From Variovorax sp. RA8 (GTDB lineage Bacteria > Pseudomonadota > Gammaproteobacteria > Burkholderiales > Burkholderiaceae_C), in contig NZ_LR594662.1 of assembly GCF_901827175.1 (NCBI RefSeq), forward strand, positions 496,001 through 560,000: 64,000 nucleotides of DNA, read 5' to 3'. Both the position numbers and the translations under genes were made by a program. The notes beneath the pieces were generated by a model, which did not search any database, was not told where the DNA came from, and worked only from the letters and a program-made list of their open reading frames with translations. The number at the start of each line of letters is the position of its first letter. Within the stretch, counting starts at the first letter, position 1. This document shows positions 5,645 to 56,471 of the stretch, one piece after another.

Positions 5645-6187
5645 ATGCCCATACCGCTCCGTTCCCGATTGGCGCCCCTTGTCCTTCTCGCCGCTGCCCT
5701 CGGCGCCTGCAGCCCGGTCTTCAATTGGCGCGAGGTCCCGATCGCAGATGACGGCCTGGTCGCGCTGCTGCCTTGCAAGCCCGACCGCGCGACCCGCAAC
5801 CTGCCGCTGGGCGGCAGCGCATCGATCGCCGTGGACATGACCGGCTGCGAGGCTGGCGGTGCCACCTTTGCCGTGGCCCATGCCACGGCCGAGGACGCGG
5901 TCCAGGCCGAAAGCTGGATGCGCGCCTGGCGCAGCGCCACCCGCAACCAGCTGGCCGGCGCGGCGATCGCCGAAGCGCCTGCCACGCTGCCTCGGGCCGC
6001 GGCCTCTCCGGCGCCCGTGCGCCTCGAGGTCCGGCAACAGGGCGCCGGAGACCCCGCGCCCGCCCAGATGCTCTGGTTCGCCCAGCAACGCAGCGGCAAG
6101 ACGGCGCTTTACCAGGCGACCGTGCTCGGCCGGCCTGCGTCGGCCGACGCGCCCGCGGTCTTTTTCGAAGGGCTGCGGCTTCCATGA
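5645..6187 (+). CDS. putative lipoprotein, unknown function
   Basis: The 180-residue product starts with a lipoprotein signal peptide ending in the lipobox LGAC (cysteine at about residue 21). The rest shows no family I recognise; it has a hydrophilic, Ala-rich body with a few cysteines (LLPCKPDRA, MTGCEAGG) and ends FFEGLRLP. Its stop codon TGA (6185-6187) is the first part of a dispersed repeat, and the downstream MFS gene starts at 6184 within the same ATGA. The gene is therefore the first of a tightly coupled run ending with ptsI. Function cannot be inferred beyond an envelope location. Confidence 0.82.
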   Translation: MPIPLRSRLAPLVLLAAALGACSPVFNWREVPIADDGLVALLPCKPDRATRNLPLGGSASIAVDMTGCEAGGATFAVAHATAEDAVQAESWMRAWRSATRNQLAGAAIAEAPATLPRAAASPAPVRLEVRQQGAGDPAPAQMLWFAQQRSGKTALYQATVLGRPASADAPAVFFEGLRLP

Positions 6188-7668
6188 GCCGCACGGCCGC
6201 TCCGAAGGCGAATGGCACCGCAGCCGAAGGTGGAGGTGCTTCAGGAGGCCGCACGGCCGCTCCGAAGGCGAATGGCACCGCAGCCGAAGGTGGAGGTGCT
6301 TCAGGAGGCCGCACGGCCGCTCCGAAGGCGAATGGCACCGCAGCCGAAGGTGGAGGTGCTCCACGAGGCCGCACGGCCGCTCCGAAGGCGAACAGCACCG
6401 CAGCCGACGGCGGAGGTACGCCAGGGAGCAGCCTCTTCCTCGGGCGCCGCCGCAGTGCCGCGGTCTTCCTGGCCTTCGCCTTCGCCTACTTCCTTTCCAC
6501 GCTGATCCGCGCCATCACCGCCACCCTGTCGCCTACGCTGACGGCGGATTTCCAGCTGCACGCGCGCGACCTCGGCCTGTTGGCCGGCGGCTATTTCCTG
6601 GGCTTCGCCATCACCCAGCTGCCCATGGGGACCTGGCTCGACCGCCACGGCCCCAAGCGCGTCATCGTGTGCTTCCTGTCGACGGCCGTCGCCGGCTGCC
6701 TGCTCTTCTCGGCCGCGACGCAATTCTCGGTGTTGATGGCCGCGCGCGTGCTCACCGGCGTGGGCGTCAGCGCCTGCCTGATGGCGCCGTTGACCGCCTA
6801 CAGGCGCTGGTTCGACCCCGCCTTGCAGCTGCGGGCCAACTCCTGGATGTTGATGGTCGGTTCGCTGGGCCTGGTCGGCGCCACGCTGCCCGTGCACTGG
6901 CTGATGCCGCTCTGGGGCTGGCGGCCGCTGTTCTGGCTGGTGGCGGCCGGCCTGCTGGTCGCCATGCTCTTGATCGCCTGGGCCGCGCCGGCCTGGCGCC
7001 AAGCCGGCGGCGAACCCCTGGGGATGACCCAGGACGGCGGGTATTCCGATGTGTGGCGCGACCCCTTCTTCCGCAAGCTGGCCCCGATCGGCTTCTTCAA
7101 CTACGGCGGCTTCGTCGCCATGCTGACGCTCTGGGTCGTTCCCTGGCTCACCCAGGTGGCCGGTTACGCGCCCGGAGAGGCGGCCGATGCGCTTTTCCAG
7201 ATCAGCATCGCGATGCTGGCAGCCTACTGGCTGTGGGGTGTCGCCAACCCCTGGTTCGCGCGCCGCGGAATCGCCGCCGACCGGCTGATCGGCTGGGGCC
7301 TGCCGCTCAGCATGCTGGCGCTGGGCGCCATCCTGGTGCTCGGGCCGGCCGCGGGTACCCTGGCGTGGATGGTCTTCCTCTGCAGCTCCACCGTCGTGGC
7401 CGTGGCCCAGCCGGCCGTCGCGATGGCGCTGCCCCCGGCGCTGGCGGGCCGGGCACTGTCGGCGTACAACCTGATGGTGTTTCTGGGTGTTTTCGTGATC
7501 CAGTGGTGCGTCGGCCTGCTGATCGACCTGCTCGGGCGGGCCGGCTTCGATGCGCCGGGCGCCTTCCGCGGCGCGCTGGGACTGTTCCTGGGATGCTGCT
7601 TGTTATCTTATTTCTACTTCCTTTGGGCGCCCCCGCATAATCGACGAACCCGCCTTCGCCCCGCATGA
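6184..7668 (+). CDS. MFS transporter with repeat-encoded N-terminal tail
   Basis: The 494-residue product is a major facilitator transporter. After an 80-residue hydrophilic tail, membrane helices begin at about residue 90 (AVFLAFAFAYFLSTLI). The loop between helices 2 and 3 contains the MFS motif-A-like TWLDRHGPKRVI. The tail is four copies of a 20-residue unit ([20 protein letters not shown] and variants) encoded by a 60-bp tandem array. No Met, GTG or TTG with a plausible ribosome site lies between the array and helix 1, so the tail should be translated. The substrate is unknown. The start overlaps the lipoprotein stop (ATGA), and its own stop overlaps the start of the EIIA gene in the same way. 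Confidence 0.88.
   Translation: MSRTAAPKANGTAAEGGGASGGRTAAPKANGTAAEGGGASGGRTAAPKANGTAAEGGGAPRGRTAAPKANSTAADGGGTPGSSLFLGRRRSAAVFLAFAFAYFLSTLIRAITATLSPTLTADFQLHARDLGLLAGGYFLGFAITQLPMGTWLDRHGPKRVIVCFLSTAVAGCLLFSAATQFSVLMAARVLTGVGVSACLMAPLTAYRRWFDPALQLRANSWMLMVGSLGLVGATLPVHWLMPLWGWRPLFWLVAAGLLVAMLLIAWAAPAWRQAGGEPLGMTQDGGYSDVWRDPFFRKLAPIGFFNYGGFVAMLTLWVVPWLTQVAGYAPGEAADALFQISIAMLAAYWLWGVANPWFARRGIAADRLIGWGLPLSMLALGAILVLGPAAGTLAWMVFLCSSTVVAVAQPAVAMALPPALAGRALSAYNLMVFLGVFVIQWCVGLLIDLLGRAGFDAPGAFRGALGLFLGCCLLSYFYFLWAPPHNRRTRLRPA
6188..6427 (+). repeat. tandem array, four 60-bp units of a dispersed repeat
   Basis: Four head-to-tail units of exactly 60 bp each start with GCCGCACGGCCGCTCCGAAG. Units 1-3 are identical over nearly all of their length; unit 4 carries a handful of changes. 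Because 60 is a multiple of three, the array keeps the reading frame and is read as 20-residue repeats at the start of the MFS gene. Single copies of the same element lie at 52512 and 56434. The near-identity of units 1-3 indicates recent expansion. Confidence 0.95.
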
Positions 7669-8120
7669 ACAGCATCTTCATCATTGCCCACTCGCCGCTC
7701 GCCCAGGCGCTGCGGCAGTGCGCGCTGCATGTGTTCCCCGACAGCGAGCCCTCGATCGCGGCGCTCGACGTGCTGCCCAACGTGTCGCCCGACGAAACCC
7801 TGGCGGCGGCGCGCATCACCCTGGCCCAACTGGAGCGCACGCCCCGCTCGCAGGTGCTGGTGCTGGCCGACGTGTTCGGCGCCACCCCCTGCAACGTGGC
7901 GCAGAAGCTGGTCGATGGCGTGCGCTCGCGCCTGGTGGCCGGCGTCAACCTGCCGATGCTGTTGCGTGCCGTAAGCTATCGCAACGAGCCGCTCGAGACG
8001 TTGGTGCAGCGTGCTCTCACCGGTGGCACCGCGGGGGTGATGCAGGTGGCGGTGGCGGCACCCCAGAATCAGGCAAGAAGAAAGCACAGTGATCAAGACA
8101 TCCGTGACCATCAGCAATAA
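7665..8120 (+). CDS. PTS EIIA component, mannose family
   Basis: This 151-residue protein is a cytoplasmic EIIA of the mannose/fructose superfamily. The phosphorylated histidine is H9 in IFIIAHSPLAQAL, and LVLADVFGATPCNVA is the second conserved segment. It takes phosphate from HPr encoded just downstream. No EIIB, EIIC or EIID gene is nearby, so it probably serves regulation rather than sugar uptake, as proposed for the incomplete PTS of betaproteobacteria. Its 3' end overlaps the ptsH start by 32 bases, which makes the last ten residues frame-locked with ptsH and non-conserved. Confidence 0.92.
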   Translation: MNSIFIIAHSPLAQALRQCALHVFPDSEPSIAALDVLPNVSPDETLAAARITLAQLERTPRSQVLVLADVFGATPCNVAQKLVDGVRSRLVAGVNLPMLLRAVSYRNEPLETLVQRALTGGTAGVMQVAVAAPQNQARRKHSDQDIRDHQQ

Positions 8121-8358
8121 GCTGGGTCTGCACGCGCGGGCCTCGGCCAAACTCACCAAGCTCGCGGGCAGCTATCCCTGCGAGGTCTGGCTGGCACGCG
8201 GTGATCGCCGGGTGAATGCCAAGAGCATCATGGGCGTGATGATGCTGGCCGCAGGCATCGGGGTGACAGTGGAGATCGAGACCGACGGCGAGCGGGAGCA
8301 GGAAGCGATGGATGCCATCGTCGCATTGATGAACGACAAGTTCGGAGAAGGCGAATGA
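8089..8358 (+). CDS. ptsH: phosphocarrier protein HPr
   Basis: HPr relays phosphate from enzyme I to EIIA. The 89-residue product has normal length, with the active H15 in NKLGLHARAS and the regulatory-type S46 in NAKSIMGVMML. The presence of the serine segment suggests that HPr kinase could act on it, as in other betaproteobacteria with hprK, though hprK is not in this window. The start is GTG, with AAGAAG upstream inside the EIIA gene. Its stop overlaps the ptsI start (ATGA). Confidence 0.96.
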   Translation: MIKTSVTISNKLGLHARASAKLTKLAGSYPCEVWLARGDRRVNAKSIMGVMMLAAGIGVTVEIETDGEREQEAMDAIVALMNDKFGEGE

Positions 8359-10166
8359 CTTTTGCCGTCCATGGGCTGCCCGTGGCCCGTGGCATTGCGA
8401 TCGGACGCGCCGTGCTCGTGGTCTCGAGCCGGCTCGACGTCGCCCACTACTTCATCAAGCCGGAAGAGGTCGAAACGGAGATCGACCGCGTGCGCATCGC
8501 GCGCAACGCCGTCGCCGAGGAGCTGCAGAAGCTGCAGGCCAGCGTCGCCCTGATGGGCCCCAACGACGCGCCGCATGAGCTCGCCGCGCTGCTCGAGGTG
8601 CACCTGATGCTGCTGCAGGACGAGGTGCTGACCGGCGGCGTCAAGCACTGGATCGTCGAGCGTCTCTACAACGCCGAGTGGGCGCTGACCACCCAGCTGG
8701 AGGTGGTCGCGCGCCAGTTCGACGAGATGGAGGACGAGTACCTGCGCGAGCGCAAGGCCGACCTCGAGCAGGTGGTGGAGCGCCTGCTGCACCGCATGAA
8801 AGGCACGGCCGCGGTGCTGGCGCCCACGCCGCCGCGGCGCAAGCGCACCGCCGAGGACGAGGACAGCGACCCCACTGCCCGCGACGCCATCGACGCCCCC
8901 CTGGTGCTGATCGCCCACGACCTCTCGCCGGCCGACATGCTGCAGTTCAAGAAGAGCGTGTTCGCCGGCTTCGTCACCGACGTCGGCGGGCGGACCTCGC
9001 ACACCGCGATCGTCGCGCGCAGCATGGACATCCCGGCCGTGGTCGGCGCGCGCAGCGCCAGCCAGCTGGTGCGGCAGGACGACTGGGTCATCATCGACGG
9101 CGATGCCGGCGTGGTGATCGTCGATCCCTCTCCCATCATCCTGGCCGAATACGGCTTCAAGCAGCGCCAGGGCGACCTGGAGCGCGGCCGGCTGGCGCGC
9201 CTGCGCCACAAGCCGGCCGTCACGCTCGATGGCCAGAAGGTCGACCTGCTGGCCAACATCGAGATGCCCGAGGACACGCTGGGTGCCGTCAAGGCCGGCG
9301 CGGTCGGCGTCGGCCTGTTCCGCAGCGAGTTCCTCTTCATGGGCCGCGAGGCCCAGCGCATGACCCGCCTGCCCGACGAGGAAGAGCAATACCAGGCCTA
9401 CCGGCGCGCCATCGAGGGCATGCAGGGCATGCCGGTCACCATCCGCACCATCGACGTCGGCGCCGACAAGCCGCTCGACGGAAAGATGGTGCGCGACGAC
9501 GAGTCCCACCTCAACCCGGCGCTCGGCCTGCGCGCGATCCGCTGGAGCCTGGCCGATCCTGCGATGTTCCTGACCCAGATCCGCGCCATCCTGCGCGCGG
9601 CCGCGCATGGCGAGATCCACCTCTTGATCCCCATGCTCGCGCACGTCAGCGAGATCCGCCAGACGCTGGCGCTGATCGACTTCGCGCGCGCCGAGCTCGA
9701 CAACCGCGGCATGGTGCATGGCAAGGTCAAGCTGGGCGCGATGATCGAAGTGCCGGCCGCAGCGCTCACGCTCAAGATCTTCCTCAAGCATTTCGATTTC
9801 CTTTCGATCGGCACCAACGACCTGATCCAGTACACCCTGGCCATCGACCGCGCCGATGAATCGGTGGCCCATCTTTACGACCCTGCCCATCCGGCCGTGC
9901 TGCGCCTCGTGGCCGAGACGATCGCCGAGTGCAGGCGCCAGGGCAAGGGCGTCAGCGTTTGCGGCGAGATGGCCGGCGACGTCGCCTTCACGCGCCTGCT
10001 GCTGGGCATGGGCCTGCGCAGCTTCTCGATGCACCCCTCGCAGATCCTGGCGGTCAAGCAGGAGGTGCTGCGCGCTGACACGAGCAAGCTGCAGGCGTGG
10101 ACGCAGCAGGTGCTCGAGGCCGACGATCCGGCCAGCCTGATGACGCCTGCGGCCGCGCCGCAATAA
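8355..10166 (+). CDS. ptsI: PTS enzyme I (phosphoenolpyruvate-protein phosphotransferase)
   Basis: Enzyme I starts the phosphate relay by phosphorylating itself from phosphoenolpyruvate and passing the phosphate to HPr. The 603-residue length is near the family norm (about 575-590). The active histidine is H216 in GGRTSHTAIVARSM. The C-terminal PEP-binding barrel shows LFRSEFLFM, DVGADKPLDG, LSIGTNDLIQYTLA and SVCGEMAGD. A small charged insert (about residues 158-178, RRKRTAEDEDSDP) is unlike the E. coli enzyme. It is the last gene of the EIIA-HPr-EI run. Confidence 0.97.
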   Translation: MTFAVHGLPVARGIAIGRAVLVVSSRLDVAHYFIKPEEVETEIDRVRIARNAVAEELQKLQASVALMGPNDAPHELAALLEVHLMLLQDEVLTGGVKHWIVERLYNAEWALTTQLEVVARQFDEMEDEYLRERKADLEQVVERLLHRMKGTAAVLAPTPPRRKRTAEDEDSDPTARDAIDAPLVLIAHDLSPADMLQFKKSVFAGFVTDVGGRTSHTAIVARSMDIPAVVGARSASQLVRQDDWVIIDGDAGVVIVDPSPIILAEYGFKQRQGDLERGRLARLRHKPAVTLDGQKVDLLANIEMPEDTLGAVKAGAVGVGLFRSEFLFMGREAQRMTRLPDEEEQYQAYRRAIEGMQGMPVTIRTIDVGADKPLDGKMVRDDESHLNPALGLRAIRWSLADPAMFLTQIRAILRAAAHGEIHLLIPMLAHVSEIRQTLALIDFARAELDNRGMVHGKVKLGAMIEVPAAALTLKIFLKHFDFLSIGTNDLIQYTLAIDRADESVAHLYDPAHPAVLRLVAETIAECRRQGKGVSVCGEMAGDVAFTRLLLGMGLRSFSMHPSQILAVKQEVLRADTSKLQAWTQQVLEADDPASLMTPAAAPQ

Positions 10167-10267
10167 AACGAAACACGCCGAAACGGCCGCGAAAGGACTT
10201 CGTGACGGCCGGATCGCACCATCGAGTCTCCCTGATCGATCCCGATCGCACTGGAAGGAAGACTCTC

Positions 10268-10732
10268 ATGAAACCCTGGTTCAAACGCTCCCTCTTTGGT
10301 TTTGCCGGCGCGGCGCTGGTCGCCGGCAGCCTCGCCGGCTGCTCCGGCCATCGTCACGGCTGGGGCGGCGGCTCCGAGCAGGACCGCGCCGAGTTTCGCG
10401 CCCGCATGGTCGAGCGCGTGGGCAGCAAGCTGGAGCTCGATGCCACGCAGAAGCAGAAGCTCGAAGTGCTGGCCGAGAAGATCCAGGCCCAGCGCCAGGC
10501 GCTGCGCGGCGGCGGCGATCCGCGCGCGGAATTCCGCGCCCTGTTCGCCGGCGCCAAGCTCGACCAGGAGCGCGCGAAGAAGCTGGTCGCGGACAAGACG
10601 GCGGCAGTCCAGGCCGGCAGCCCCGAGGTGATTGCGGCAGCAGCTGACTTCTTCGACAACCTGAATCCCACGCAGCAGCAGAAGGTGCGCGAGTTCATGG
10701 AGCGTGGCCGCCGCTGGGGCCACCGTGGCTGA
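10268..10732 (+). CDS. Spy/CpxP-like periplasmic lipoprotein
   Basis: The 154-residue product starts with a lipoprotein signal peptide and the lipobox LAGC (cysteine at about residue 25). A His/Gly-rich stretch follows, then a helical region with LDATQKQKLEVLAEKI and a second LNPTQQQKVREFMERG, the paired LTxxQ-type motifs of the Spy/CpxP family of envelope chaperones. A CpxR-CpxA-like pair lies a little downstream, matching the usual genomic link of such proteins with envelope-stress sensing. The ATG at 10268 has a GGAAGGAAG ribosome binding site. Confidence 0.87.
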   Translation: MKPWFKRSLFGFAGAALVAGSLAGCSGHRHGWGGGSEQDRAEFRARMVERVGSKLELDATQKQKLEVLAEKIQAQRQALRGGGDPRAEFRALFAGAKLDQERAKKLVADKTAAVQAGSPEVIAAAADFFDNLNPTQQQKVREFMERGRRWGHRG

Positions 10733-11198
10733 TCTTTCCGCAGCGCGGATTCCGCCCGCGAGGGTCTCGAACCCGCCGTGGGCGCGGCCGGTGCCGGACA
10801 CCCGGAACGCTCTGCCTGGCGCCGCGCAGGGCGGCGTACGCATCCTGCTACGGCTCGAAGGCCTGGCCGTGCTCGCGGCGGCCGTGGCCGCCTATGTGGA
10901 CCTGGGCGCGAGCTGGGGCGCCTTCGCCATGCTGTTCCTGCTGCCCGACCTGAGCTTCCTCGGCTACCTCGCCGGCTCGCGCGTGGGTGCCTCCGCGTAC
11001 AACATGGCGCACTCCTACATCGGTCCGGTCGCCTTGCTGGGGCTGGGCCTGGTCGGCGACATGCCGGCCGCCGTGGCGCTCGGGCTGATCTGGAGCGCGC
11101 ACATCGGACTGGACCACGCCTTGGGCTACGGCCTCAAGTACGGGAGCGAGTTCGGTGTCACCCACCTCGGCCGCGTCGGCCCCACCGACCCATGGTGA
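10725..11198 (+). CDS. DUF4260 family membrane protein
   Basis: The 157-residue product has a polar N-terminus of about 40 residues followed by hydrophobic helices. The segments RLEGLAVLAAA, LFLLPDLSFLGYLAGSRVGA and YNMAHSYIGP, and the end with GLDHALGYGLKY, match my recollection of DUF4260. Function is unknown. A GTG at 10725 overlaps the stop of the Spy-like gene and is taken as the start; GTG at 10704 is also in frame. It may be co-transcribed with the Spy-like gene and the two-component system. Confidence 0.75.
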   Translation: MADLSAARIPPARVSNPPWARPVPDTRNALPGAAQGGVRILLRLEGLAVLAAAVAAYVDLGASWGAFAMLFLLPDLSFLGYLAGSRVGASAYNMAHSYIGPVALLGLGLVGDMPAAVALGLIWSAHIGLDHALGYGLKYGSEFGVTHLGRVGPTDPW

Positions 11199-11313
11199 GC
11201 ATCACGCCGCATGATGGAATCCGCCGGCCACCCCCGGGGCTGGCCTTCGCGCTGCGATGGCGGCCGGCCTGATCACCAGCCTGCTGTTCGCCGGTAGGCA
11301 CAATCGCCATCGC

Positions 11314-12000
11314 ATGCCCCGCATCCTGCTGATCGACGACGACGAGCACCTGGCCGCGCCGCTGGCGAGCTACTTTGCGCGCTTCGACTGCGTGCTGGAG
11401 AGCGCGCAGCGCCCCAGCGATGGCCTGGCCAAGCTGCGGGCCCAGGCCTACGACTGCGCCATCCTCGACGTCATGCTGCCCGAGATGGACGGCTTCGCCC
11501 TGTGCCGCGAGATCCGCAAGGAGAGCGACATCCCGATCGTGATGCTGACCGCGCGCGGCGACGTCATGGACCGCGTGGTCGGCCTCGAGCTCGGCGCCGA
11601 CGACTACCTGCCCAAGCCCTTCGAGCCGCGCGAGCTGGTCGCGCGGGTGCAGACCATCCTGCGCCGCCAGCGCGCCATGCCGGCCGCGGCGCCCGCGCAG
11701 CGCCGGGTCTTCGAGGGCCTGTCGATCGACCTCGACCGCCGCGAGGTGCTGCGCCAGGGCGAGCGCGTGGAGCTGACCGGCACCGAGTTCGAGCTGCTCG
11801 CCCTCTTGGCCGACCCGCCCGGCAAGGTCTGGAGCCGCGACGACATCCTGAACCGGCTGCGCGGCCACGAAGCCGAGCTCTACACCCGCGCCGTCGACAT
11901 CGTGGTGAGCCGCCTGCGCAAGAAGCTGGAGCCGCTCGACTGCATCAAGACCCTGCGCAACGCGGGCTACATGCTCGCGGTCGGCAAGAGCGATCCGTGA
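11314..12000 (+). CDS. CpxR-like response regulator, OmpR family
   Basis: This 228-residue DNA-binding response regulator has a receiver domain with acidic residues D8-D10 and the phosphorylated D52 in AILDVMLPEMDG, the conserved LTARGD and KPFEPRELVARV. A winged-helix domain of the OmpR/PhoB class follows from about residue 130 (LTGTEFELLALLADPPGKVWSR, then VDIVVSRLRKKLEP). The adjacent sensor kinase overlaps its stop codon. With the Spy/CpxP-like gene upstream, a role in envelope-stress control is likely. Confidence 0.93.
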   Translation: MPRILLIDDDEHLAAPLASYFARFDCVLESAQRPSDGLAKLRAQAYDCAILDVMLPEMDGFALCREIRKESDIPIVMLTARGDVMDRVVGLELGADDYLPKPFEPRELVARVQTILRRQRAMPAAAPAQRRVFEGLSIDLDRREVLRQGERVELTGTEFELLALLADPPGKVWSRDDILNRLRGHEAELYTRAVDIVVSRLRKKLEPLDCIKTLRNAGYMLAVGKSDP

Positions 12001-13292
12001 ACCGGCGCCCGCATTCGCCCCGGCACTGGCGAAGCCGCTGGCGGCATTCGCTGCGCCTGCGGCTGATCACCGTCTTCGTGCTGCTCGCCATGGCGATGGC
12101 GGCGGTGTTCCTGGGCGGCATGCAGCGCGCCTTCTCCAACGGCTGGCGCGAGGCGGCGCAGCCGCTGGTCGGCGACTACATGGACCGGCTGGTGGCCGAG
12201 CTCGGCACGCCGCCCGACGTGGCACGCGCGCAGGCCCTGGTCACGCGGCTGCCGATCTCGATCCGCATCGAGGGTCCGGCGGTCAACTGGGACTCGCATC
12301 CGCAGCGCCGCTGGCGCAACTTCGGCCCGGGCAGGGGCGACTGGCTCACGCGCAGCACCGCCGACGGCCATCGCATCAGCTTCGGGCTGGGCACACTGCC
12401 GTGGCAGCGCGAGCCGCATGGCATCGGCTGGATCACGCTGGCGCTGCTGCTCGCCCTGATCGCGATCGCGTACGCCTATGTGCGCAGGCTCCTGCGGCCG
12501 CTGGACGACATCCGCGACGGCGCCGAGCGCTTCGGCCGCGGCGCCTTCGACCAGCCGATCCCGCTGCGCCGGCGCGACGAGCTGGGCGACCTGGCGCAGC
12601 GCATCAACACCATGGCCCACGACATCCAGGGGATGCTGGACGCCAAGCGCGCGTTGCTGCTCGCGCTGAGCCACGAGCTGCGCTCGCCGCTCACGCGAGC
12701 GCGCCTGAATGCCGAGCTGCTGCCGGCCACGCCCGAGGGCGAGACCGAGCGCGCCGCGCTCCTGCGCGACCTGGCCGAGATGCGCGACCTGATCAGCGAC
12801 CTGCTCGAGAGCGAGCGCCTCGCGAGCCCGCATGTGGCGCTGCAGCGCGAGCCGGTCGACCTGGCGGCGCTGGTGCACGATGTGGTGGCCGAGCATCCCG
12901 AGGGCGGCCGCGTCGTGCTCGACATCGCCGAAGGCCTGCCGGCGGTGGCGGTGGACCGCCTGCGCATCCGCGTGCTGGTGCGCAACCTGCTCGAGAACGC
13001 GTTGCGCTACGGCGTCGACGCGTCCCAGCCGCCGCGCATCGCGCTGCGCGCTGCGGGGCAGGGCGGCATCGCGCTGGAGGTGCGCGACTTCGGCCCCGGC
13101 GTCGATGCCGCGCAGCTGGAGCACCTGACCGAGCCCTTCTACCGCACCGACAGTGCACGCCAGCGCGCCACCGGCGGGGTCGGGCTGGGCATGTACCTCT
13201 GCCGCCTGGTGGCCGAGGCGCATGGCGGCACGCTCACGGTGCGCAACGCCCAGCCGGGCCTGGCGGTCAGCGCCGTGCTGCCCGGCGCTTGA
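11997..13292 (+). CDS. CpxA-like sensor histidine kinase
   Basis: The 431-residue membrane kinase has a first membrane helix at about residues 20-42, a periplasmic sensor region, and a second helix at about residues 140-162. A HAMP segment (RRLLRPLDDIRDGAERFGRG) and a HisKA domain with phosphorylated H226 in ALSHELRSPLTRAR follow. The ATP-binding domain shows NLLENALRYG, VRDFGPGV and GVGLGMYLC. The GTG start overlaps the TGA of the response regulator gene (GTGA), so the two are coupled. The sensed signal is unknown; CpxA-type envelope stress is the best guess. Confidence 0.92.
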   Translation: MNRRPHSPRHWRSRWRHSLRLRLITVFVLLAMAMAAVFLGGMQRAFSNGWREAAQPLVGDYMDRLVAELGTPPDVARAQALVTRLPISIRIEGPAVNWDSHPQRRWRNFGPGRGDWLTRSTADGHRISFGLGTLPWQREPHGIGWITLALLLALIAIAYAYVRRLLRPLDDIRDGAERFGRGAFDQPIPLRRRDELGDLAQRINTMAHDIQGMLDAKRALLLALSHELRSPLTRARLNAELLPATPEGETERAALLRDLAEMRDLISDLLESERLASPHVALQREPVDLAALVHDVVAEHPEGGRVVLDIAEGLPAVAVDRLRIRVLVRNLLENALRYGVDASQPPRIALRAAGQGGIALEVRDFGPGVDAAQLEHLTEPFYRTDSARQRATGGVGLGMYLCRLVAEAHGGTLTVRNAQPGLAVSAVLPGA

Positions 13293-13383
13293 ACGAACTC
13301 GATCCCTGTCGCCTGTGCTACCGGCGTGCCTTCCGGGCGGGGCTACGATCCTTCCCCCGTACACCCAGGCAGGAGACAAACCC

Positions 13384-14427: not shown

Positions 14428-14445
14428 TCGAAAGCGGGTGTCGGG

Positions 14446-15300: not shown

Positions 15301-15364
15301 GCGCCCGAGCTTAAGCGGCGCGCTCGTCGCGCAACGACGGCGCATCGTCGGGGAACGACGGTCT

Positions 15365-16063: not shown

Positions 16064-16088
16064 GGGATGGCGCCGATTGTCCTCCCGC

Positions 16089-16820: not shown

Positions 16821-16851
16821 CGTGAACGCGATTTTGAGGCTCAGGGTTAGT

Positions 16852-16880
16852 ACTGACGCGAGAATATGTTCGGACATATT
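16852..16880 (+). promoter_or_regulatory. candidate promoter of the lyase cluster
   Basis: CTGACG at 16852-16857 and CATATT at 16875-16880 are separated by 17 bases and are fair matches to -35 and -10 elements. The -10 element falls inside the upstream operator, which would make repression by steric block direct. The match is modest and the assignment is an inference. Confidence 0.35.
16864..16879. promoter_or_regulatory. operator 1, probable GntR binding site
   Basis: ATATGTTCGGACATAT is a 16-base near-palindrome. Its exact reverse complement occurs at 16888-16903, with centres 24 bases apart. The arms ATATGT and ACATAT are perfect inverted repeats around a 4-base centre. Its place between the GntR gene and the lyase gene points to the GntR regulator as ligand. 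Confidence 0.82.
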
Positions 16881-16887
16881 ACATTCA

Positions 16888-16903
16888 ATATGTCCGAACA
16901 TAT
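16888..16903. promoter_or_regulatory. operator 2, probable GntR binding site
   Basis: ATATGTCCGAACATAT is the exact reverse complement of operator 1, placed on the same face of the helix within about two turns. It runs into the ATG at 16902, so it covers the likely transcription start or first codons of the lyase gene. Two such sites suggest cooperative repression. Confidence 0.82.
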
Positions 16904-19312: not shown

Positions 19313-19317
19313 AGCCC

Positions 19318-48987: not shown

Positions 48988-49159
48988 GCGACCCCCGGAG
49001 ATGCACCGGGCTGGGCACCGGCGGCCGGGGCCAGTGTCATGGATTCGGTTGTTCGTTGCAAACAAAATGATGCATTCGGGAAGGCCTGGCCGGATGGGCT
49101 ATTTCCCGGCCACCCTTTCGCAGGTAAAACGCCGCGAATCGTTCACAGCCTGCTTCGCC

Positions 49160-49717
49160 ATGCACCATCCCTTTCCTTCGAGGTCGCTCGTGGCCCGCGC
49201 CGCCCGCACCGGTTGTTCCATCCTTCTCGCGTGCGGTGCCTGTGCCGCCATGCCGGCGGGTGCGGCGATGGACTACCCCGCGCGCAAGCCCGGGCTCTGG
49301 GAGATGACGATCCAGGCCGACGGCGGCGCCAAGGCGCCCGCGATGAGCACCCAGCAATGCATCGACGCCGCCACCGACAAGGCAATGCGCGAGATGGGCA
49401 ATGGCGCGGACCGGCAGGACTGCTCGAAGCAGGACATGCGCAACGAAGCCGGCCGCATGGTGATCGACTCCGTTTGCAAGATCGGCACCAGCACCGCCAC
49501 CACGCACGCCGTGGTGACGGGTGACTTCGGCAGCGCCTACCGAATGGAAAGCCGATCGACCTACAGCCCGCCCATGATGGGTCGCAGCGAAGGCACGGCC
49601 GTCATCGAGGCCAAGTGGGTCGGGCCCTGCAAGGCAGGCCAGAAGCCGGGCGACATCGTGCTGCCCAACGGCATGAAGATGAACCTGCTCGAGATGCCTG
49701 CCGCGCGCGGCAAGTAG
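49160..49717 (+). CDS. DUF3617 domain periplasmic protein
   Basis: The 185-residue product has an N-terminal signal-like segment (about residues 18-35, CSILLACGACAAMPAGAA) and then a domain beginning KPGLWEMTIQADGG, with paired cysteines in STQQCIDAATD, RQDCSKQDM and SVCKIG. The pattern GLWE, a cysteine-containing middle, and DFGSAYRMESRSTYSPPMMG match DUF3617. Function is unknown; an envelope location is likely. The start is uncertain; the ATG at 49160 is the first before the signal segment. Confidence 0.82.
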   Translation: MHHPFPSRSLVARAARTGCSILLACGACAAMPAGAAMDYPARKPGLWEMTIQADGGAKAPAMSTQQCIDAATDKAMREMGNGADRQDCSKQDMRNEAGRMVIDSVCKIGTSTATTHAVVTGDFGSAYRMESRSTYSPPMMGRSEGTAVIEAKWVGPCKAGQKPGDIVLPNGMKMNLLEMPAARGK

Positions 49718-49792
49718 GCGGCGAAAGCCCGGCATCGCGCGCGACGCGGGCCTACACGCGCGCCGGGCGAGGCCGGGCTAGCATGGCCCGCC

Positions 49793-50848
49793 ATGCCCCC
49801 CCAAGACCTCGTCGTTGCGCGTCCCGAAGGCCTGTACTGCCCGCCCGGCGACTTCTACATCGACCCGTGGCGGCCGGTGAACCGCGCGGTCATCACCCAC
49901 GCGCATTCCGATCACGCGCGCGTGGGCCATGGCCAGTACCTCGCGCACGAAGACAGCGCCGGCACCCTGCGCGCTCGCCTCGGCGACATCACCCTGCAGA
50001 CGCTTCCCTACGGCGCGGCGATCGACCACCGCGGCGTGCGCCTGTCGCTGCATCCGGCCGGGCACGTGCTGGGCTCGGCGCAGGTGCGGCTCGAGCATGG
50101 GGGCCGCGTGTGGGTGGCCTCCGGCGACTACAAGACCGAGTCCGACGGCACCTGCACGCCCTTCGAGCCGGTGCCCTGCGACACCTTCATCACCGAGTCC
50201 ACTTTCGGCCTGCCGATCTACCGGTGGCCGGCGCAGGCCGCGCTCTTCGCGGAGATCGACGACTGGTGGCGTGCCAACGCGAAGCATGGGCGCGCCTCGG
50301 TACTGCTGTGCTATGCCTTCGGCAAGGCGCAGCGCATCCTGCACGGCGTGGACGCGAGCATCGGGCCGATCGTGGTGCATGGCGCGGTGGAGCCGCTGAA
50401 CGCGGTCTACCGCGCGGCGGGCGTGGCGCTGCCATCCACGCTGCGCGTGACGGACCCCGGCGTGGACGCAGCGCTGCTCAAGCGCGCGCTGGTGCTGGCG
50501 CCGCCATCGGCTGCCGGCACGCCATGGATGCGGCGTTTCGGCCAGTACTCGGATGCCTTCGCCAGCGGCTGGATGCAGCTGCGCGGAACGCGCAGGCGGC
50601 GCGGCGTGGACCGGGGCTTCGTGATGTCGGACCACGCGGATTGGCCGGGCCTGCAGCAGGCCATCGCGGGCACAGGGGCCGAGCGGGTGTTCGTGACGCA
50701 TGGGAATGTGGCGGTCATGGTCCGCTGGCTGGGCGAGAACGGGGTGGATGCCCGGTCCTTCCACACCGAGTACGGCGACGAGGACATGGAAGGCGACGCG
50801 AGTGCGGGGAGCCCCATCCCAGGCGAAGGAGAAACAGCCGAGCCATGA
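49793..50848 (+). CDS. ligase-associated DNA exonuclease (metallo-beta-lactamase fold)
   Basis: The 351-residue protein has the metallo-beta-lactamase metal site THAHSDH (H36, H38, D40, H41), with HPAGHVLGSAQV and the C-terminal beta-CASP-like SDHADWPGL and VTHGN. It belongs to the exonuclease family that is encoded beside bacterial ATP-dependent ligases. It should trim DNA ends in repair. Its stop overlaps the ligase start (ATGA), making a direct translational link. Confidence 0.93.
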   Translation: MPPQDLVVARPEGLYCPPGDFYIDPWRPVNRAVITHAHSDHARVGHGQYLAHEDSAGTLRARLGDITLQTLPYGAAIDHRGVRLSLHPAGHVLGSAQVRLEHGGRVWVASGDYKTESDGTCTPFEPVPCDTFITESTFGLPIYRWPAQAALFAEIDDWWRANAKHGRASVLLCYAFGKAQRILHGVDASIGPIVVHGAVEPLNAVYRAAGVALPSTLRVTDPGVDAALLKRALVLAPPSAAGTPWMRRFGQYSDAFASGWMQLRGTRRRRGVDRGFVMSDHADWPGLQQAIAGTGAERVFVTHGNVAVMVRWLGENGVDARSFHTEYGDEDMEGDASAGSPIPGEGETAEP

Positions 50849-52515
50849 AGCAGTTCGCCGCGCTGTACCGCGAGCTCGATGCGAGCACCTCCAACCTCGT
50901 GAAGCAGGCGGCGCTGCAGCGCTACCTCCAGGCCGCCGACCCCGAGGACGCCGCCTGGGCCGTGTACTTCCTGGCGGGCGGCCGGCCGCGGCAACTGGTG
51001 CCGACCAAGCTGCTGCGGCTGCTGGCACAGCAGGCCGCCGGCCTGCCGGAGTGGCTGTTCGACGAGAGCTACGAGGCGGTGGGCGACCTGGCCGAGACCC
51101 TCTCGCTGCTGCTGCCGCCCCCCACCGAGGCGCACGACCTGGGCCTCGCGACGTGGATCGAGCAGCACTTGCTGCCCTTGCGCGGGATGCCCCCCGAACC
51201 GCTCGCCGATGCCCTGCGCGCCCAGTGGCGACAGTTGGCGCCGGAGGAGCGCCTCGTCTACTTCAAGCTCATCACCGGCGCCTTCCGCGTCGGCGTCTCG
51301 CGCCTGCAGGTCACGCAGGTGCTGGCGGCGATGAGCGGGCTCGACCCCAAGCAAGTCGCGCAGCGGCTGATGGGCTACACCCACATCGCGGGCCGGCCGG
51401 GCGCGGCCGACTTCGCGGCGCTGATCGCGCCCGAGAGCGGGAACGAGCAGGACCGCCAGGCGAGCGGGCAGCCTTACCCCTTCTTCCTCGCGCATCCCTT
51501 CGCACTGCCGCTCGATCAGTTCGATGCGGTGCTGGGCCCGCCCTCGCAGTGGCTCATCGAATGGAAGTGGGACGGCATCCGCGCGCAACTGGTGCGGCGC
51601 GCCGGCCAGGTATGCCTGTGGTCGCGCGGCGAGGAGCTGGTGACGGACCGCTTTCCCGAGCTGGCCGACATGGGCCGAGCGCTGCCTGACGGCGCGGTGC
51701 TCGATGGCGAGATCGTGGTCTGGCACCGGGACTCGACCGCGCCTCACGGCGAGGGCCGCGTGCAGCCCTTTGCCGAGTTGCAGAAGCGCATCGGCCGCAA
51801 GACGCTGACGCCGAAGCTGTTGCGCGAAATCCCCGTGGTGCTGCTGGCCTACGACCTGCTCGAGTGGGAAGGCCGCGACCTGCGGGCGATGCCGCAGCAG
51901 GAGCGGCGCGTGCTGCTCGACGACCTCGTCGCGACGGCGCAGCACCCCGCTCTGATCGCGAGCCCGATGCTGCACGGCGAGAGCTGGCAGGATCTCGCGC
52001 GCCAGCGCGAATCGGCACGGGCGATGGGCGTGGAAGGCATGATGCTCAAGCAGCGCCACGCGGCCTACGGCGTCGGCCGCACCAAGGACGTGGGCTTGTG
52101 GTGGAAGTGGAAGATCGACCCGCTCTCGGTGGACGCCGTGCTGGTCTACGCGCAGCGCGGACATGGGCGGCGCGCGAGCCTGTACAGCGACTACACCTTC
52201 GCGGTGTGGGATGCGCCGCCCGAGGTCGAGGGGCGCAAGCTCGTGCCCTTCGCCAAGGCCTATTCCGGGCTGAGCGATGCCGAGATGGGACGCGTCGACG
52301 CGATCATCCGGCGCACCACCATCGAGAGCTTCGGGCCGGTCAGGAGCGTGAAGCCCACGCTGGTCTTCGAGCTTGGTTTCGAGGGCATCGCGCGCAGCGC
52401 CCGGCACAAGAGCGGCATCGCAGTGCGCTTTCCGCGCATGCTGCGCTGGCGCGAGGACAAGCCGGTGGAGGAGGCGGATACCTTGCAGACGCTGGCGGCG
52501 CTGCTGCCGCCATGA
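50845..52515 (+). CDS. ATP-dependent DNA ligase
   Basis: The 556-residue ligase seals nicks using ATP. An N-terminal helical domain (residues 1 to about 200) precedes the nucleotidyltransferase domain with the adenylated lysine K241 in [12 protein letters not shown], the LDGEIVVW motif and the GVEGMMLK motif. The OB domain ends with the conserved [18 protein letters not shown] region and a basic tail. It is the LigB/LigC-like family linked to the exonuclease and helicase next to it, not LigD. Its stop codon TGA is part of a dispersed repeat. Confidence 0.95.
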
Positions 52516-52572
52516 GCCGCACGGCCGCTCCGAAGGCGAATCGCCCGCAGCCGAAGGCGAAGGTCCTCCAGT
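52512..52572 (+). repeat. dispersed repeat copy between ligase and helicase
   Basis: About 60 bases match the units of the array at 6188 nearly end to end, beginning ATGAGCCGCACGGCCGC with a few changes and one missing base. The TGA at 52513-52515 is the ligase stop. An ATG at 52512 opens a 20-residue frame ([13 protein letters not shown] and on) that ends at 52574, just 5 bases before the helicase ATG. Confidence 0.92.
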
Positions 52573-52579
52573 GAACCCC

Positions 52580-55126
52580 ATGAGCCGACTGGACGATTGG
52601 TTCGCGTCGCGCGGCTGGGAAGCCTTCGACTTTCAACGCAGCGTCTGGCAAGCCCTCGCCGAAGGCCGCTCCGGCCTGCTCCACGCCACCACGGGCGCGG
52701 GCAAGACTTACGCCGTCTGGCTCGGCGCGCTGCACGCCTTCGCGACGAAGGCAGCGGGCAAGACGCCGCCGCCGCTGACCGTGCTGTGGTTGACGCCGAT
52801 GCGCGCCCTGGCCGCCGATACCTTGCGCGCGCTGCAGCAGGCTCTCGATGCCCTGCAGCCCGACTGGAGCGCAGCCGCCCGCAGCGGCGACACCTCCTCG
52901 GCCGAGCGCAGCGCGCAGAACCTGCGTCTGCCGACGGTGTTGGTCACCACGCCCGAGAGCCTCTCGCTGCAGCTTGCGCGCGCCGATGCCAGGGAGGTGC
53001 TGGGCTCGCTGCGCCTGGTCGTCATCGACGAATGGCACGAGCTGCTGGGCAACAAGCGCGGCGTGCAGGTGCAGCTCGCGCTGGCACGGTTGCGTCGCTG
53101 GAATGCCGGCCTCTGCACCTGGGGCATGTCGGCCACGCTCGGCAATCTGCAGGACGCCATGCGCACGCTGCTGGCCGGCGGCGACGGCGTCTTGGTGCAG
53201 GGTGACGTGCCCAAGCAGCTGCTCATCGACTCGCTGCTGCCTGGGCGCGCCGAGCGCTTTCCGTGGGGCGGGCACCTGGGGCTCACCATGCTGCCGCAAG
53301 TCATCGGGGAAATCGCCGCCAGCGCGAGCACGCTGGTCTTCACCAACACGCGCTCCCAATCCGAGATCTGGTACCAGGCCCTGCTCGAGGCGCGGCCCGA
53401 ATGGGCGGGGCAGATCGCACTGCACCACGGCTCGCTGGACCGCGCGGTACGCGAATGGGTGGAGCTGGGCCTGAAGTCGGGCGCGCTCAAGGCCGTGGTG
53501 TGCACCTCCAGCCTGGACCTCGGCGTGGACTTCCTGCCGGTCGAGCGCGTGCTGCAGATCGGCTCGGCCAAAGGCGTGGCGCGGCTGTTGCAGCGCGCGG
53601 GACGCTCGGGCCATGCGCCCGGGCGTCCATCGCGCATCACCCTCGTGCCCACGCACAGCATCGAGATCGTGGAGGGCGCCGCCGCGCGCGAAGCCGTGGC
53701 GCAGGGCCGCATCGAGGAGCGCCGGTCGCCGGCGCAGCCGCTGGACGTGCTGGTGCAGCACCTGGTCACGGTCGCGCTCGGCGGCGGCTTCGTGCCCGAC
53801 GATCTCTATGCGGAGGTGCGCTCCACGGTGGCCTACGCCGGGCTGTCCCGCGAGAGCTGGCAGTGGTGCCTGGACTTCGTGGCTCAGGGCGGGCCCTCGC
53901 TCGTGGCCTACCCCGACTACCGCCGCGCGGTGCCCGACGCCGAGGGGGTGTGGCGCGTGCCCGATACGCGTCTGGCGCGCCGGCACCGCATGAACATTGG
54001 CACCATCGTCAGCGACGCCAGCATGGCCGTGCAGTACCTGCGTGGGGCCAGGATCGGCAGCGTGGAGGAAAGCTTCGTCGCCCGCATGAAGCCGGGGGAC
54101 TGCTTCCTCTTCGGCGGCCGGCTCCTGGAGCTGGTGCGAGTGCACGACATGACGGCCTGGGTGCGGCGCGCTAGCGGCCGCAAGCCCTCCGTGCCGCGCT
54201 GGAACGGTGGGCGCATGCCGCTGACCAGCACCCTGGCCGATGCCGTTGTGCGGCAGCTGGCGCTGGCCGATGCCGGCTGCTACGACACCCCGGAGTTGCA
54301 ATCCGTTCGGCCGCTGCTCGAGATCCAGCAGCGCTGGTCGGCGCTGCCGACGCCGGACACCCTGCTGGCCGAGTTGCTGAAGACGCGCGAGGGCTGGCAT
54401 CTCTTCCTCTATCCGTTTGCGGGGCGGCTGGTGCACCTGGGCCTGGCCAGCCTGCTCGCCTGGCGCATCGCACAGCACCAGCCGCGCACCTTCTCGATCG
54501 CGGTGAACGACTACGGCTTCGAGCTGCTCTGCGCGGCCGACCCTGACTGGCCGGCGCTGCTGCCGCAGGTGCTGGCCCCGGTGGACGAGACGCAACTGCT
54601 GCACGAGGTGCTCGCCTCCCTCAACGCCACCGAGCTGGCGCGCCGGCGCTTCCGCGAGATCGCGCGCGTCTCCGGCCTGATCTTCCAGGGCTATCCCGGC
54701 GAGCGGCGCAGCAGCCGGCAGCTGCAGGCCTCCTCCTCGCTGTTCTACGAGGTGTTCCGCAAGTACGACCCTGCCAACCGGTTGTTGCAGCAGGCCGAGG
54801 AGGAACTGCTCGCGCAGGAGCTGGAGATCGGGCGGCTGAGCGCCGTCCTCGCGCGCATGGCCTCGCAGCGGCTCATGGTACAGACGCCGCAGCGGCCCAC
54901 CCCCTTCGCCTTTCCGCTGATGGTGGAGCTGTTTCGCGAGAAGCTGTCGAACGAGAGCGCGGCTGAGCGCATCGCGCGCATGGTCGCGCAGCTGGAGCGG
55001 GCCGCGGGCGGCGGCGCCGAGCCGGCCGACCCTGACCGCGTGCGCAGGACACTGGCCTTCGAGAGGCCCGTGGAGGAAGGTCAGGCCGGGCGCGGAAAAG
55101 TCCCGGAAGGACCGGGGGCGGCGTGA
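52580..55126 (+). CDS. Lhr-type DEXH helicase, ligase-associated
   Basis: The 848-residue protein is a superfamily 2 helicase of the Lhr-Core type. The N-terminal RecA domain has [21 protein letters not shown], Walker [17 protein letters not shown] and the DEXH box [11 protein letters not shown]. The second RecA domain has [24 protein letters not shown] and [11 protein letters not shown] winged-helix and C-terminal Lhr region follow. It should unwind DNA or RNA-DNA in repair. The ATG at 52580 lacks a clear ribosome site; GTG at 52571 is in frame. Coupling through the short frame in the repeat is possible. Confidence 0.93.
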
Positions 55127-55172
55127 CAATTCGCAAGATTCCGATGCGCGAGCTTCTGTAAAACTCGAACTC

Positions 55173-55841
55173 GTGCATGCCGCTTCCCCCTCCTGCCGGC
55201 TCGACGTTGCCGGCCAATCCCTCGAGCTCCTTCCAGAGCGAGCCCTCTGGTGGCCGGCCGGCGAAATGCTGTTCGTGGCCGATCTCCACCTGGGCAAGGC
55301 GGCCAGCTTCAGGGCGCTCGGGCAACCGGTGCCGCACGGCACGACGGCGCAGAACCTCGCCCGGCTCGACCGCCTGATCGAGCAGTACCGGCCGCGCGAG
55401 TTCGTCGTGCTCGGCGATTTCCTGCATGACGCACAGGCGCGCACGCCGCAGTTGCTGGCGAGCCTCCAGACCTGGCGCGAACAGCACGCGCAGCTTCGCT
55501 GCACGCTGGTGCGCGGCAACCACGACAGCCATGCCGGCGACCCGCCGGCCGCGCTGCGCTTCGAGAGCGTCGACGAGCCCTACCTGACCGGCCCCTTCGC
55601 CGCCTCTCACCACCCCCGGCCTCATCCGACGCACTTCGTGCTCGGCGGTCACCTCCATCCGGTCTGCAAGCTGCAGGGCAGCGGACGCGACAGCCTGCGC
55701 ATGCCCTGCTTCGTGCGCGAGGAACGGCGGCTGATCCTGCCTGCCTTCGGCGAGTTCACTGGTGGTTGGCTGATGGAGGCCATGCCGGGCCGCTGTTTCT
55801 ATGGCATCGGCGGCGATGCCGTGTGGCCGTTGCCGATCTGA
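55173..55841 (+). CDS. pdeM: ligase-associated metallophosphoesterase (PdeM/MPE)
   Basis: The 222-residue protein is a calcineurin-type phosphoesterase. Metal-binding motifs are FVADLHLGK, VLGDFLHD, VRGNHDSH and GGHLHPVC, in the right order. In other bacteria this family is encoded with Lhr-Core, ATP-dependent ligase and the MBL exonuclease, and the set acts in DNA repair. The start is GTG at 55173. It follows the helicase after 46 bases and is the last gene of the cassette. Confidence 0.92.
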   Translation: MHAASPSCRLDVAGQSLELLPERALWWPAGEMLFVADLHLGKAASFRALGQPVPHGTTAQNLARLDRLIEQYRPREFVVLGDFLHDAQARTPQLLASLQTWREQHAQLRCTLVRGNHDSHAGDPPAALRFESVDEPYLTGPFAASHHPRPHPTHFVLGGHLHPVCKLQGSGRDSLRMPCFVREERRLILPAFGEFTGGWLMEAMPGRCFYGIGGDAVWPLPI

Positions 55842-55853
55842 CGACTCCCATTC

Positions 55854-56436
55854 ATGGCACAAGCACCCAAGCCTCCCCACCGCAGCGACCTGCGCGAACA
55901 TGCTGTCGAGCTGATGATGCAAGCCGCTCCCCTGGCCGGCATGAGCCGCGCCGAGGCGGAAGTCGTGGTCGACGCCATGAAGCCGGTGCATGTGCTGGCC
56001 GACACGCTGCTGTTCGAGGAGGGTGACGCGGCCGACAGCGACTACCTGGTGCTGGTGCTGGAAGGCCAGTTGCGGGCCGTGAACAGCTCCGGCATCCCTG
56101 ACGGCGAAGTCGTGATCACGGTTCGGCGCCGGCAGCCTGCTGGGCGAGATGGGGGTGATCGACGGCGGACCGCGCTCCGCCAGCTGCACGGCGCTGACGG
56201 ACGTCAAGCTGGGCGTGCTCCCGCGCGCTTCGCTGCTGGGCATGATCGAAAGCCATCCGATGGTGGCGGCCCGGATGATGCTGGGCATCTCCACGATCCT
56301 CGCTGGGCGCCTGCGCGAAGGCAACCGGCGCTTGCGTACGCTGTCGCAGGTGTCGCGCGCGCTGCAGCTGGAGCTGGACGCAGTCCATGCGGTCAACCGG
56401 CGGCTGCTGGAGGAGCAGGCCGGGCGCGGCGGCTGA
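55854..56436 (+). pseudogene. cyclic-nucleotide-binding domain protein, frameshifted
   Basis: Two frames share one domain. From the ATG at 55854 the first frame reads to VLEGQLRAVNSSGIPDGEVVITV, a cyclic-nucleotide-binding beta-roll, and then loses sense near 56120. The next frame takes up with FGAGSLLGEMGVIDGGPRSASCTAL, which is the phosphate-binding cassette region of the same fold, and runs to the TGA at 56434-56436. One extra base or two missing bases near 56115-56126 would explain it. Joined, the product would be about 194 residues with a helical tail and no DNA-binding domain. A sequencing error is possible; an internal ATG at 56149 could make only the second half. Confidence 0.82.
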
Positions 56437-56471
56437 GCCGCACGGCCGCTGCGAAGGCGAAGTCAGTGCCG
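56434..56471 (+). repeat. third copy of the dispersed repeat
   Basis: TGAGCCGCACGGCCGCTGCG and the next AAGGCGAAG match the element at 6188 and 52512 with one or two changes; similarity fades after about 38 bases. As in the other copies the TGA is the stop codon of the upstream gene. Confidence 0.85.

What the first reader, a model, noticed from the sequence alone, without database searches (positions are those of the whole stretch)
6184..56471. Dispersed repeat that supplies stop codons at three unrelated gene ends
The element starting TGAGCCGCACGGCCGCTCCG occurs at 6185, 52513 and 56434. In all three the TGA is the stop codon of the upstream gene (a lipoprotein, a DNA ligase, a cyclic-nucleotide-binding gene), on the same strand. 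In two of the three the preceding base makes ATGA, so the repeat also offers a start codon in the +1 frame, giving the peptide start [11 protein letters not shown] mobile or recombining sequence that docks at gene ends and both closes one gene and opens another is unusual. The three copies are seen directly; the mechanism is inference.
Basis: partly seen in the sequence, partly recalled or inferred. Interest (0 to 1): 0.82.

Follow-up and report, generated by a model that had tools for sequence, protein, structure and literature searches.

The report
Repeat that docks at stop-start overlaps
A roughly 60-base repeated DNA element has inserted itself, again and again, where one bacterial gene's stop codon overlaps the next gene's start codon, keeping the first gene's ending and giving the second gene a new start.

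Summary
The 25-base core has 81 copies (up to 3 mismatches) in this 7.4-Mb genome; the copy at 6185 is the first of four tandem 60-bp units. Of 65 arrays parsed, 56 begin at ATGA or GTGA. Relatives without the repeat show the unfilled site: a 4-base stop/start overlap, RTGA, for 14 of 24 junctions examined. So the element does not supply the upstream stop. It lands just 3' of a stop that was already there and gives the downstream gene a Shine-Dalgarno-like tract and a second RTGA. The left ATG opens a frame that either ends at the right RTGA (mini-ORF) or runs in frame into the next gene; 173 of 176 measurable copies fit one of these. Two short hairpins show compensatory changes; the encoded peptide shows no purifying selection. 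This is the architecture described for mycobacterial MIRUs (PMC12548453, passage seen), here in Comamonadaceae and neighbouring Burkholderiales. A Betaproteobacterial repeat, BRE, was reported in 2011 without this docking rule (PMC3110155). I rate it a new variant of a known kind. The enzyme that moves it is unknown.

The parts
6184..6423 (+). Array of four tandem 60-bp units (6184, 6244, 6304, 6364). The left edge ATGA (6184-6187) holds the TGA stop of the lipoprotein-like ORF. All right-hand RTG codons are lost, so from the sequence the array can only be read as an N-terminal extension ([22 protein letters not shown]...) of the MFS gene.
   Evidence: G014 has one unit at the same place, G003 has none
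5549..6187 (+). Upstream open frame (start codon not determined; lipobox-like signal judged by eye) ending in the TGA of ATGA
   Evidence: no Pfam match
6184..7665 (+). Open frame from the left ATG through all four units into an MFS transporter (494 codons)
   Evidence: PF07690 E 3.6e-36 at residues 99-438
52512..52570 (+). Complete 59-bp element between left ATGA (52512-52515) and right GTGA (52571-52574). 20-codon mini-[23 protein letters not shown] whose stop overlaps the right GTGA
   Evidence: no element in G014
50713..52515 (+). Upstream ATP-dependent DNA ligase (3' part examined; start not determined), stop TGA 52513-52515 in the left ATGA
   Evidence: PF01068, PF04675, PF04679
52571..54070 (+). 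Downstream Lhr-like DEAD-box helicase (first 500 codons examined), start at the right-hand GTG or at the ATG 9 bases later
   Evidence: PF00270, PF00271, PF19306
56433..56461 (+). 5' fragment of the element behind CTGA, the stop of a cyclic-nucleotide-binding ORF; no right end; next ORF is convergent
56116..56436 (+). Open frame with the C-terminal half of a cNMP-binding domain, stop TGA 56434-56436
   Evidence: PF00027 profile positions 44-89 of 89

Best explanation
A non-autonomous, MIRU-like mobile repeat. It inserts directly 3' of a TGA, mostly the RTGA tetranucleotide in which an upstream stop overlaps a downstream start. The left RTGA is the old target. The inserted piece carries a first hairpin, a frame open from the left ATG, a second small hairpin, a Shine-Dalgarno-like tract (GAAGG or GGAGG) and a second RTGA that restarts the downstream gene. 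The upstream protein is therefore unchanged. The downstream gene is reached by one of two routes. Lengths that are 2 mod 3 (for example 38, 59, 62) give a mini-ORF whose stop overlaps the new start. Lengths that are 0 mod 3 (for example 54, 60, 63, 72) give an in-frame N-terminal extension. Shown: position, unfilled sites, lengths, tandem arrays, hairpin covariation. Inferred: transposition by an unknown enzyme acting in trans, translation of the mini-ORF, and near-neutrality to the host as the reason copies survive mainly at these sites.
For: 81 copies in the own genome. 56 of 65 arrays begin ATGA or GTGA, 61 of 65 NTGA. Left edge closes a frame of 100+ codons in 51/65 versus 106/609 background; both edges at ORFs in 39/65 versus 70/609 by nearly the same rule. 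Unfilled sites: for 24 junctions in 4 related genomes (96 cells) 25 are clean 4-base RTGA overlaps, 9 near-clean, 11 lack the element with another junction, 23 carry an element (one doubtful), 28 not comparable; 14 of 24 junctions have at least one clean unfilled site. ftsW-murG (names): of 30 loci read from 61 genomes, 14 are unfilled ATGA, 3 carry this family (own included), 2 an 82-87-bp family, 6 a third insert of 76-79 bp, 5 a short spacer. leuC-leuD: unfilled ATGA in G007 and G075 at 88-90% flank identity, and in G015 and G016 at 72-86% (possible paralogues). Frame: lengths are 2 mod 3 in 103, 0 mod 3 in 70, 1 mod 3 in 3 of 176; two of the three are parser misplacements by eye. Hairpins: 94.5% of cells paired, 53 double-change cells versus a shuffle mean of 21.6, 0/500.
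Against: No transposase was linked to it. The only candidate tested, a Y1_Tnp gene, is present in 58 of 61 genus genomes, one copy in 57 of them; an element lies 1.0-2.8 kb upstream of it in the five genomes looked at, not adjacent. Mini-ORF residues show no purifying selection (97 synonymous changes versus 96.3 expected). Folding energy is no better than shuffles in 4 of 4 copies (z +0.9 to +1.1). Four of 65 arrays have no NTGA at the left edge and 56 of 232 candidates have no measurable right end. Copies share descent, so frame and pairing counts are not independent. Eleven cells lack the element but have a junction other than a 4-base overlap. A related intergenic kind does not sit at RTGA.
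Confidence: 0.77

Rival explanations
1. A host-adapted intercistronic regulatory cassette: the repeat is kept because the hairpin plus Shine-Dalgarno tract uncouples or boosts translation of the second gene, and it spreads mainly by gene conversion between junctions.
For: Compensatory changes in both hairpins. An SD-like tract followed within 10 bases by NTGA in 176 of 232 candidates. The same junction is occupied in own, G014, G007 and G075 by diverged copies at recN-rapZ (L041) and at the junction of L066 (polyferredoxin-like and TorD-like genes).
Against: 14 of 24 junctions filled in the own genome are cleanly unfilled in at least one relative. Three different inserts use the same ftsW-murG ATGA. 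Gene conversion needs a copy already in place, so it does not explain first arrival.
Confidence: 0.15
2. Ordinary intergenic repeat with no target rule; stops and starts at its ends arise by chance or by selection against other sites.
For: Nine of 65 arrays begin with something other than ATGA or GTGA. A related intergenic kind in G109, G153, G193 and G178 does not sit at RTGA (8 of 20 loci read).
Against: If selection alone placed copies, harmless intergenic sites without TGA should be common; 61 of 65 left edges are NTGA. Clean unfilled RTGA sites in relatives.
Confidence: 0.04
3. Classical MITE with target-site duplication of RTGA and terminal inverted repeats, moved by a DDE transposase.
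For: RTGA is present on both sides of most complete copies, as a 3-4-base duplication would give. At 10 of 14 scored junctions left, right and relatives agree.
Against: No terminal inverted repeats seen by eye. Left and right first bases differ in make-up: own in-frame copies left 25 A/6 G, right 12 A/18 G/1 T, Fisher p 0.0016 without the T. Where relatives have A, the right copy is G in L028, L035 and L041, and in L009 (there two of three relatives have A). The right RTGA is thus at least partly element-borne, unless A-to-G changes came later.
Confidence: 0.1

Closest known systems
MIRU, mycobacterial interspersed repetitive units (review PMC12548453: passages of sections 4 and 11 and a reference entry seen; Supply et al. 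1997 itself not seen)
   Same: Short interspersed repeat, apparently mobile, inserting at start codons so that an ORF in the repeat is coupled to the next gene with -4 nt spacing; copy number varies (MIRU typing papers, listing).
   Different: Burkholderiales. Sequences were not compared. A large class here (length 0 mod 3) is fused in frame to the downstream gene. Two covarying hairpins are shown here.
BRE, Beta-proteobacterial repeat element (Hot et al. 2011, PMC3110155; passages and section 14 seen)
   Same: Repeats of ~90 bp with partial ~60 and ~40 bp forms, GC-rich, sometimes tandem, copy number variable between strains, found in several Comamonadaceae; some overlap ORF ends by a few bases.
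   Different: The section read names no insertion rule and suggests no function. Its sequences are in a figure and in supplements that I could not read, so identity is untested.
REP/REPIN with RAYT transposase (recalled; only the abstract start of PMC3116915 seen)
   Same: Short hairpin-bearing non-autonomous repeats; a left tetranucleotide kept from the target is reminiscent of HUH systems (recalled).
   Different: Sits at gene junctions in the sense direction; nearest copy is 1.0-2.8 kb from the Y1_Tnp gene in the five genomes looked at.
Rickettsia palindromic elements (recalled, no call)
   Same: Repeat that adds in-frame peptide to host proteins.
   Different: Those lie inside genes; this one sits at gene starts and keeps the upstream stop.

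Membership tests
MIRU | Short interspersed repeat occurring singly and in tandem | tested here: met
   65 arrays from 80 units: 56 single, 5 double, 2 triple, 2 quadruple
MIRU | Inserted at start codons that overlap a stop (NTGA) | tested here: met
   Left edge NTGA in 61 of 65; 25 clean unfilled overlaps among 68 comparable cells in relatives
MIRU | Internal ORF coupled to the neighbour with -4 spacing | tested here: met
   103 of 176 copies by length (2 mod 3; some end as TGATG or TAATG, -1 spacing); 70 are instead in-frame fusions. Translation not tested
MIRU | Sequence relationship to mycobacterial units | not tested
   No MIRU sequence was fetched
BRE | Multicopy in Comamonadaceae and other Betaproteobacteria | tested here: met
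BRE | Sequence identity to the Bordetella element | not testable with these tools
   Sequences are in a figure and supplements that are not held
BRE | Full length ~90 bp with ~60 and ~40 bp partial forms | tested here: inconclusive
   Lengths of 37-41 and 50-72 and an 82-87-bp kin with a similar 5' module
REP/REPIN with RAYT | Cognate RAYT gene flanked directly by the repeat | tested here: not met
   Nearest copy 2.8 kb (G000, G007, G014, G075) or 1.0 kb (G080) from the Y1_Tnp gene; inverted-repeat scan of three of the five regions shows no such array
DDE-type MITE | Perfect target-site duplication | tested here: inconclusive
   Right base differs from left at 4 of 14 scored junctions, agrees at 10; make-up of left and right differs
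Rfam families | Match to a curated RNA family | tested here: not met
   0 matches in the window at gathering thresholds

The most novel reading that the evidence does not exclude
A class of mobile element in Burkholderiales, independent of MIRUs, that uses the stop/start overlap (RTGA) as an insertion site, keeps the target RTGA on its left and brings its own RTGA on its right. It is a translatable mobile linker that threads itself into operons without breaking either gene and from time to time becomes a new N-terminal part of a protein, as in the MFS gene at 6184. Several repeat families would then have converged on the same niche, as at ftsW-murG.
Probability: 0.4. Interest if true: 0.78.

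Novelty: new variant of a known kind. Interest (0 to 1): 0.62.

Why it matters
[quoted passage not shown] An element that targets it can enter operons such as ftsW-murG and leuC-leuD without breaking a gene. Each insertion turns a tightly coupled gene pair into one with a new ribosome-binding site, a new mini-ORF or a new protein N-terminus. With unfilled sites known in close relatives, the effect on coupling can be measured junction by junction. The finding also offers an insertion rule for a kind of Betaproteobacterial repeat whose function was left open in 2011.

Tried and rejected
Repeat as source of the stop codon: rejected, relatives without it use the same TGA.

RAYT (Y1_Tnp, PF01797) as the mover: 58 of 61 genus genomes have it, 57 with one copy and one with two. 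In five genomes the nearest element is 1.0-2.8 kb upstream of the gene. Not supported; a role in trans is not excluded.

Autonomous parent copy: looked for 3' tails in the own genome (54 matches). Of ten tails without a listed core that were printed, eight belong to complete elements with a diverged core; two (L347, L348) show no core nearby. A transposase between such ends was not searched for.

Selected peptide: not supported by substitutions. Stable RNA fold: four copies, none better than shuffles, although pairing covaries.

Plasmids: the 236-bp array had no match in 72,556 plasmid records, yet one copy lies on a record titled as a Variovorax plasmid (L118). Rfam: none in the window.

Of 32 prepared junctions 24 were searched; eight (block 2) were not. 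One 'element' cell (L007 in G007) is doubtful by eye. The slid control failed for five of six slides; the tool control replaces it. I first called L041 hprK-rapZ and L066 narH-narJ by eye (notes); one search shows recN-rapZ, and polyferredoxin-like with a TorD-like gene.

Literature: ten searches. Their listings showed no paper on a start/stop-docking repeat in Comamonadaceae; most subscription papers are not held.
Full report
What is in the window. The 20-mer is at 6185 and 52513 exactly and at 56434 with one mismatch, far above chance. 6185 begins an array of four 60-bp units. Its left edge ATGA contains the stop of a lipoprotein-like open frame and opens a frame that stays open through all four units into an MFS transporter (494 codons). 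The 52512 copy is a single 59-bp element between an ATP-dependent DNA ligase and an Lhr-like helicase. It encodes a 20-codon mini-ORF whose stop overlaps the right-hand GTGA. The 56433 copy is a 5' fragment behind CTGA at the end of a cNMP-binding ORF and faces a convergent ORF.

Genome-wide. The 25-base core has 81 copies at up to 3 mismatches, 41 and 40 per strand, and none for the reversed pattern. I parsed 80 of the 81 (loci); the other was fetched later (L356). The 80 form 65 arrays: 56 single, 5 double, 2 triple, 2 quadruple. The left tetranucleotide is ATGA in 47, GTGA in 9, CTGA in 3, TTGA in 2 and other in 4. The left edge closes a frame of at least 100 codons (or one running off the fetched piece) in 51 of 65; one of these, L059, no longer has the TGA. 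Both edges abut long frames in 39 of 65 against 70 of 609; 2 of 65 have neither.

Unfilled sites. I joined the flanks of 24 junctions (of 32 prepared, of 65 arrays) and searched four related genomes. Of 96 cells, 28 had no flank pair. Of the other 68, 25 are clean 4-base RTGA overlaps, 9 are near-clean, 11 lack the element but have another junction, and 23 carry an element, one doubtful. Fourteen of 24 junctions have at least one clean unfilled site. For ftsW-murG (names; 61 genus genomes searched, the 30 loci given were read) 14 are unfilled ATGA overlaps, 3 carry this family (own, G014, G080), 2 an 82-87-bp family with a similar 5' module (two tandem units in G007), 6 a third insert of 76-79 bp and 5 a spacer of 2-32 bases. 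For leuC-leuD (30 loci, 8 parsed) G007 and G075 show the unfilled ATGA at 88-90% flank identity and G015 and G016 at 72-86%, which may be paralogues. For the window's own 6184 locus G003 lacks the repeat and ends the upstream gene at the same ATGA, G014 has one unit against four here, G007 has three diverged units with the MFS gene largely missing, and G075 has neither repeat nor MFS gene there. For 56433, G007 ends the gene at the same CTGA without the repeat, while G014 and G075 carry diverged copies. The stop therefore predates the repeat.

Which RTGA belongs to the element. At the 14 junctions with clean unfilled sites the left base agrees with at least one relative in each. The right base is G where relatives have A in L028, L035 and L041, and in L009, where two of three relatives have A; at the other ten it agrees. 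In own in-frame copies the left base is 25 A/6 G and the right base 12 A/18 G/1 T (Fisher p 0.0016 without the T). I infer that the left RTGA is the old target and the right one is, at least in part, carried by the element. Later A-to-G change is not excluded.

Reading frames. Among 232 candidates in the loci held at that point (own, named and unnamed relatives; the named ones were found by a pattern that demands RTGA), 176 have a measurable right end: 103 lengths are 2 mod 3, 70 are 0 mod 3 and 3 are 1 mod 3. By eye two of the three (L065, L106) are parser misplacements and the third (L017) is a CTGA copy. In the 2-mod-3 class the left ATG opens a mini-ORF that stops in the right RTGA, or one codon earlier as TGATG or TAATG. 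In the 0-mod-3 class it runs into the next gene. Among 49 distinct 60-bp units synonymous changes are as many as expected (97 versus 96.3; 0 stops versus 1.2 expected), so the peptide itself shows no constraint.

Structure. A 44-sequence alignment (18 own, 26 from the scan) supports two hairpins: 94.5% of cells paired, 53 double-change cells against a shuffle mean of 21.6, covariation score 0.254 against 0.084, 0 of 500 shuffles; slid versions fall to 34-44% paired. The pair 35-53 is broken in 19 of 44. A larger, overlapping set of 90, on which the fold was predicted, gives 98.1% paired and 75 double changes, shuffle maximum 27. Minimum free energies of four copies are not better than shuffles, so the hairpins are conserved but not unusually stable. 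They could act as RNA or as single-stranded DNA.

Range. The core at up to 3 mismatches, which includes a genus-wide variant (GCCGCCGGGCCGCTCCCAAGGCGAA), is in 24 of 61 genomes searched, all 24 among the 37 of the genus. A covariance model finds matches in 23 of 150 genomes of the order, own included, 24 of them in one genome of another genus of the family; at most 34 candidates a genome were scored, so counts are lower bounds. Of 20 such loci read, about ten have an RTGA at the left edge, eight belong to an intergenic kind that does not, and two look like chance.

Comparison and verdict. MIRUs are the closest kind by mechanism: the review states that they insert at start codons and couple by -4 spacing (PMC12548453, passage seen). 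BRE is the closest by host range and size (PMC3110155, section 14 read); its sequence could not be compared. The element is best filed as a Betaproteobacterial, MIRU-like, start/stop-docking repeat. Shown: position, unfilled sites, frame classes, covariation. Inferred: mobility in trans, translation of the mini-ORF, near-neutrality to the host. Unknown: the enzyme.

Noticed in passing
L189-L218 (ftsW-murG junction): Three different inserts (60-bp family, 82-87-bp hairpin family, 76-79-bp third kind) occupy the same ATGA in different genus members; the third kind ends in a near copy of the upstream gene's last bases.
   Followed up: partly
L381, L383, L384, L385, L387 (G109), L390, L391, L394: Intergenic repeats with the same core; in several the flanking arms differ by locus yet stay complementary (for example GATTCGCC with GGCGAATC, TTTTTGCC with GGCAAAAA). 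The docked kind keeps the right arm GGCGAAT, while its left arm is two bases off and contains the TGA.
   Followed up: no
window 6184-6423: All four right-hand start codons of the array are lost, so the MFS protein has probably gained about 80 extra N-terminal residues from the repeat.
   Followed up: partly
window 55854-56436: The cNMP-binding domain is covered only in its second half by the ORF ending at 56434; the first half may lie in another frame (possible frameshift or sequencing error).
   Followed up: no
L058, L037: The upstream gene appears to end in a type-B tail (GGAGGTTGCCTTATGA), as if a second element had landed in the right end of an older one.
   Followed up: no
L118: A copy on a record titled as a Variovorax plasmid (sp. 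WS11 pVarWS11_2), although the plasmid collection search with the window's array gave none.
   Followed up: no
L341-L345: In four of five genomes an element (diverged in some) lies at the same place 2.8 kb upstream of the single Y1_Tnp gene; in G080 one lies 1.0 kb upstream.
   Followed up: partly
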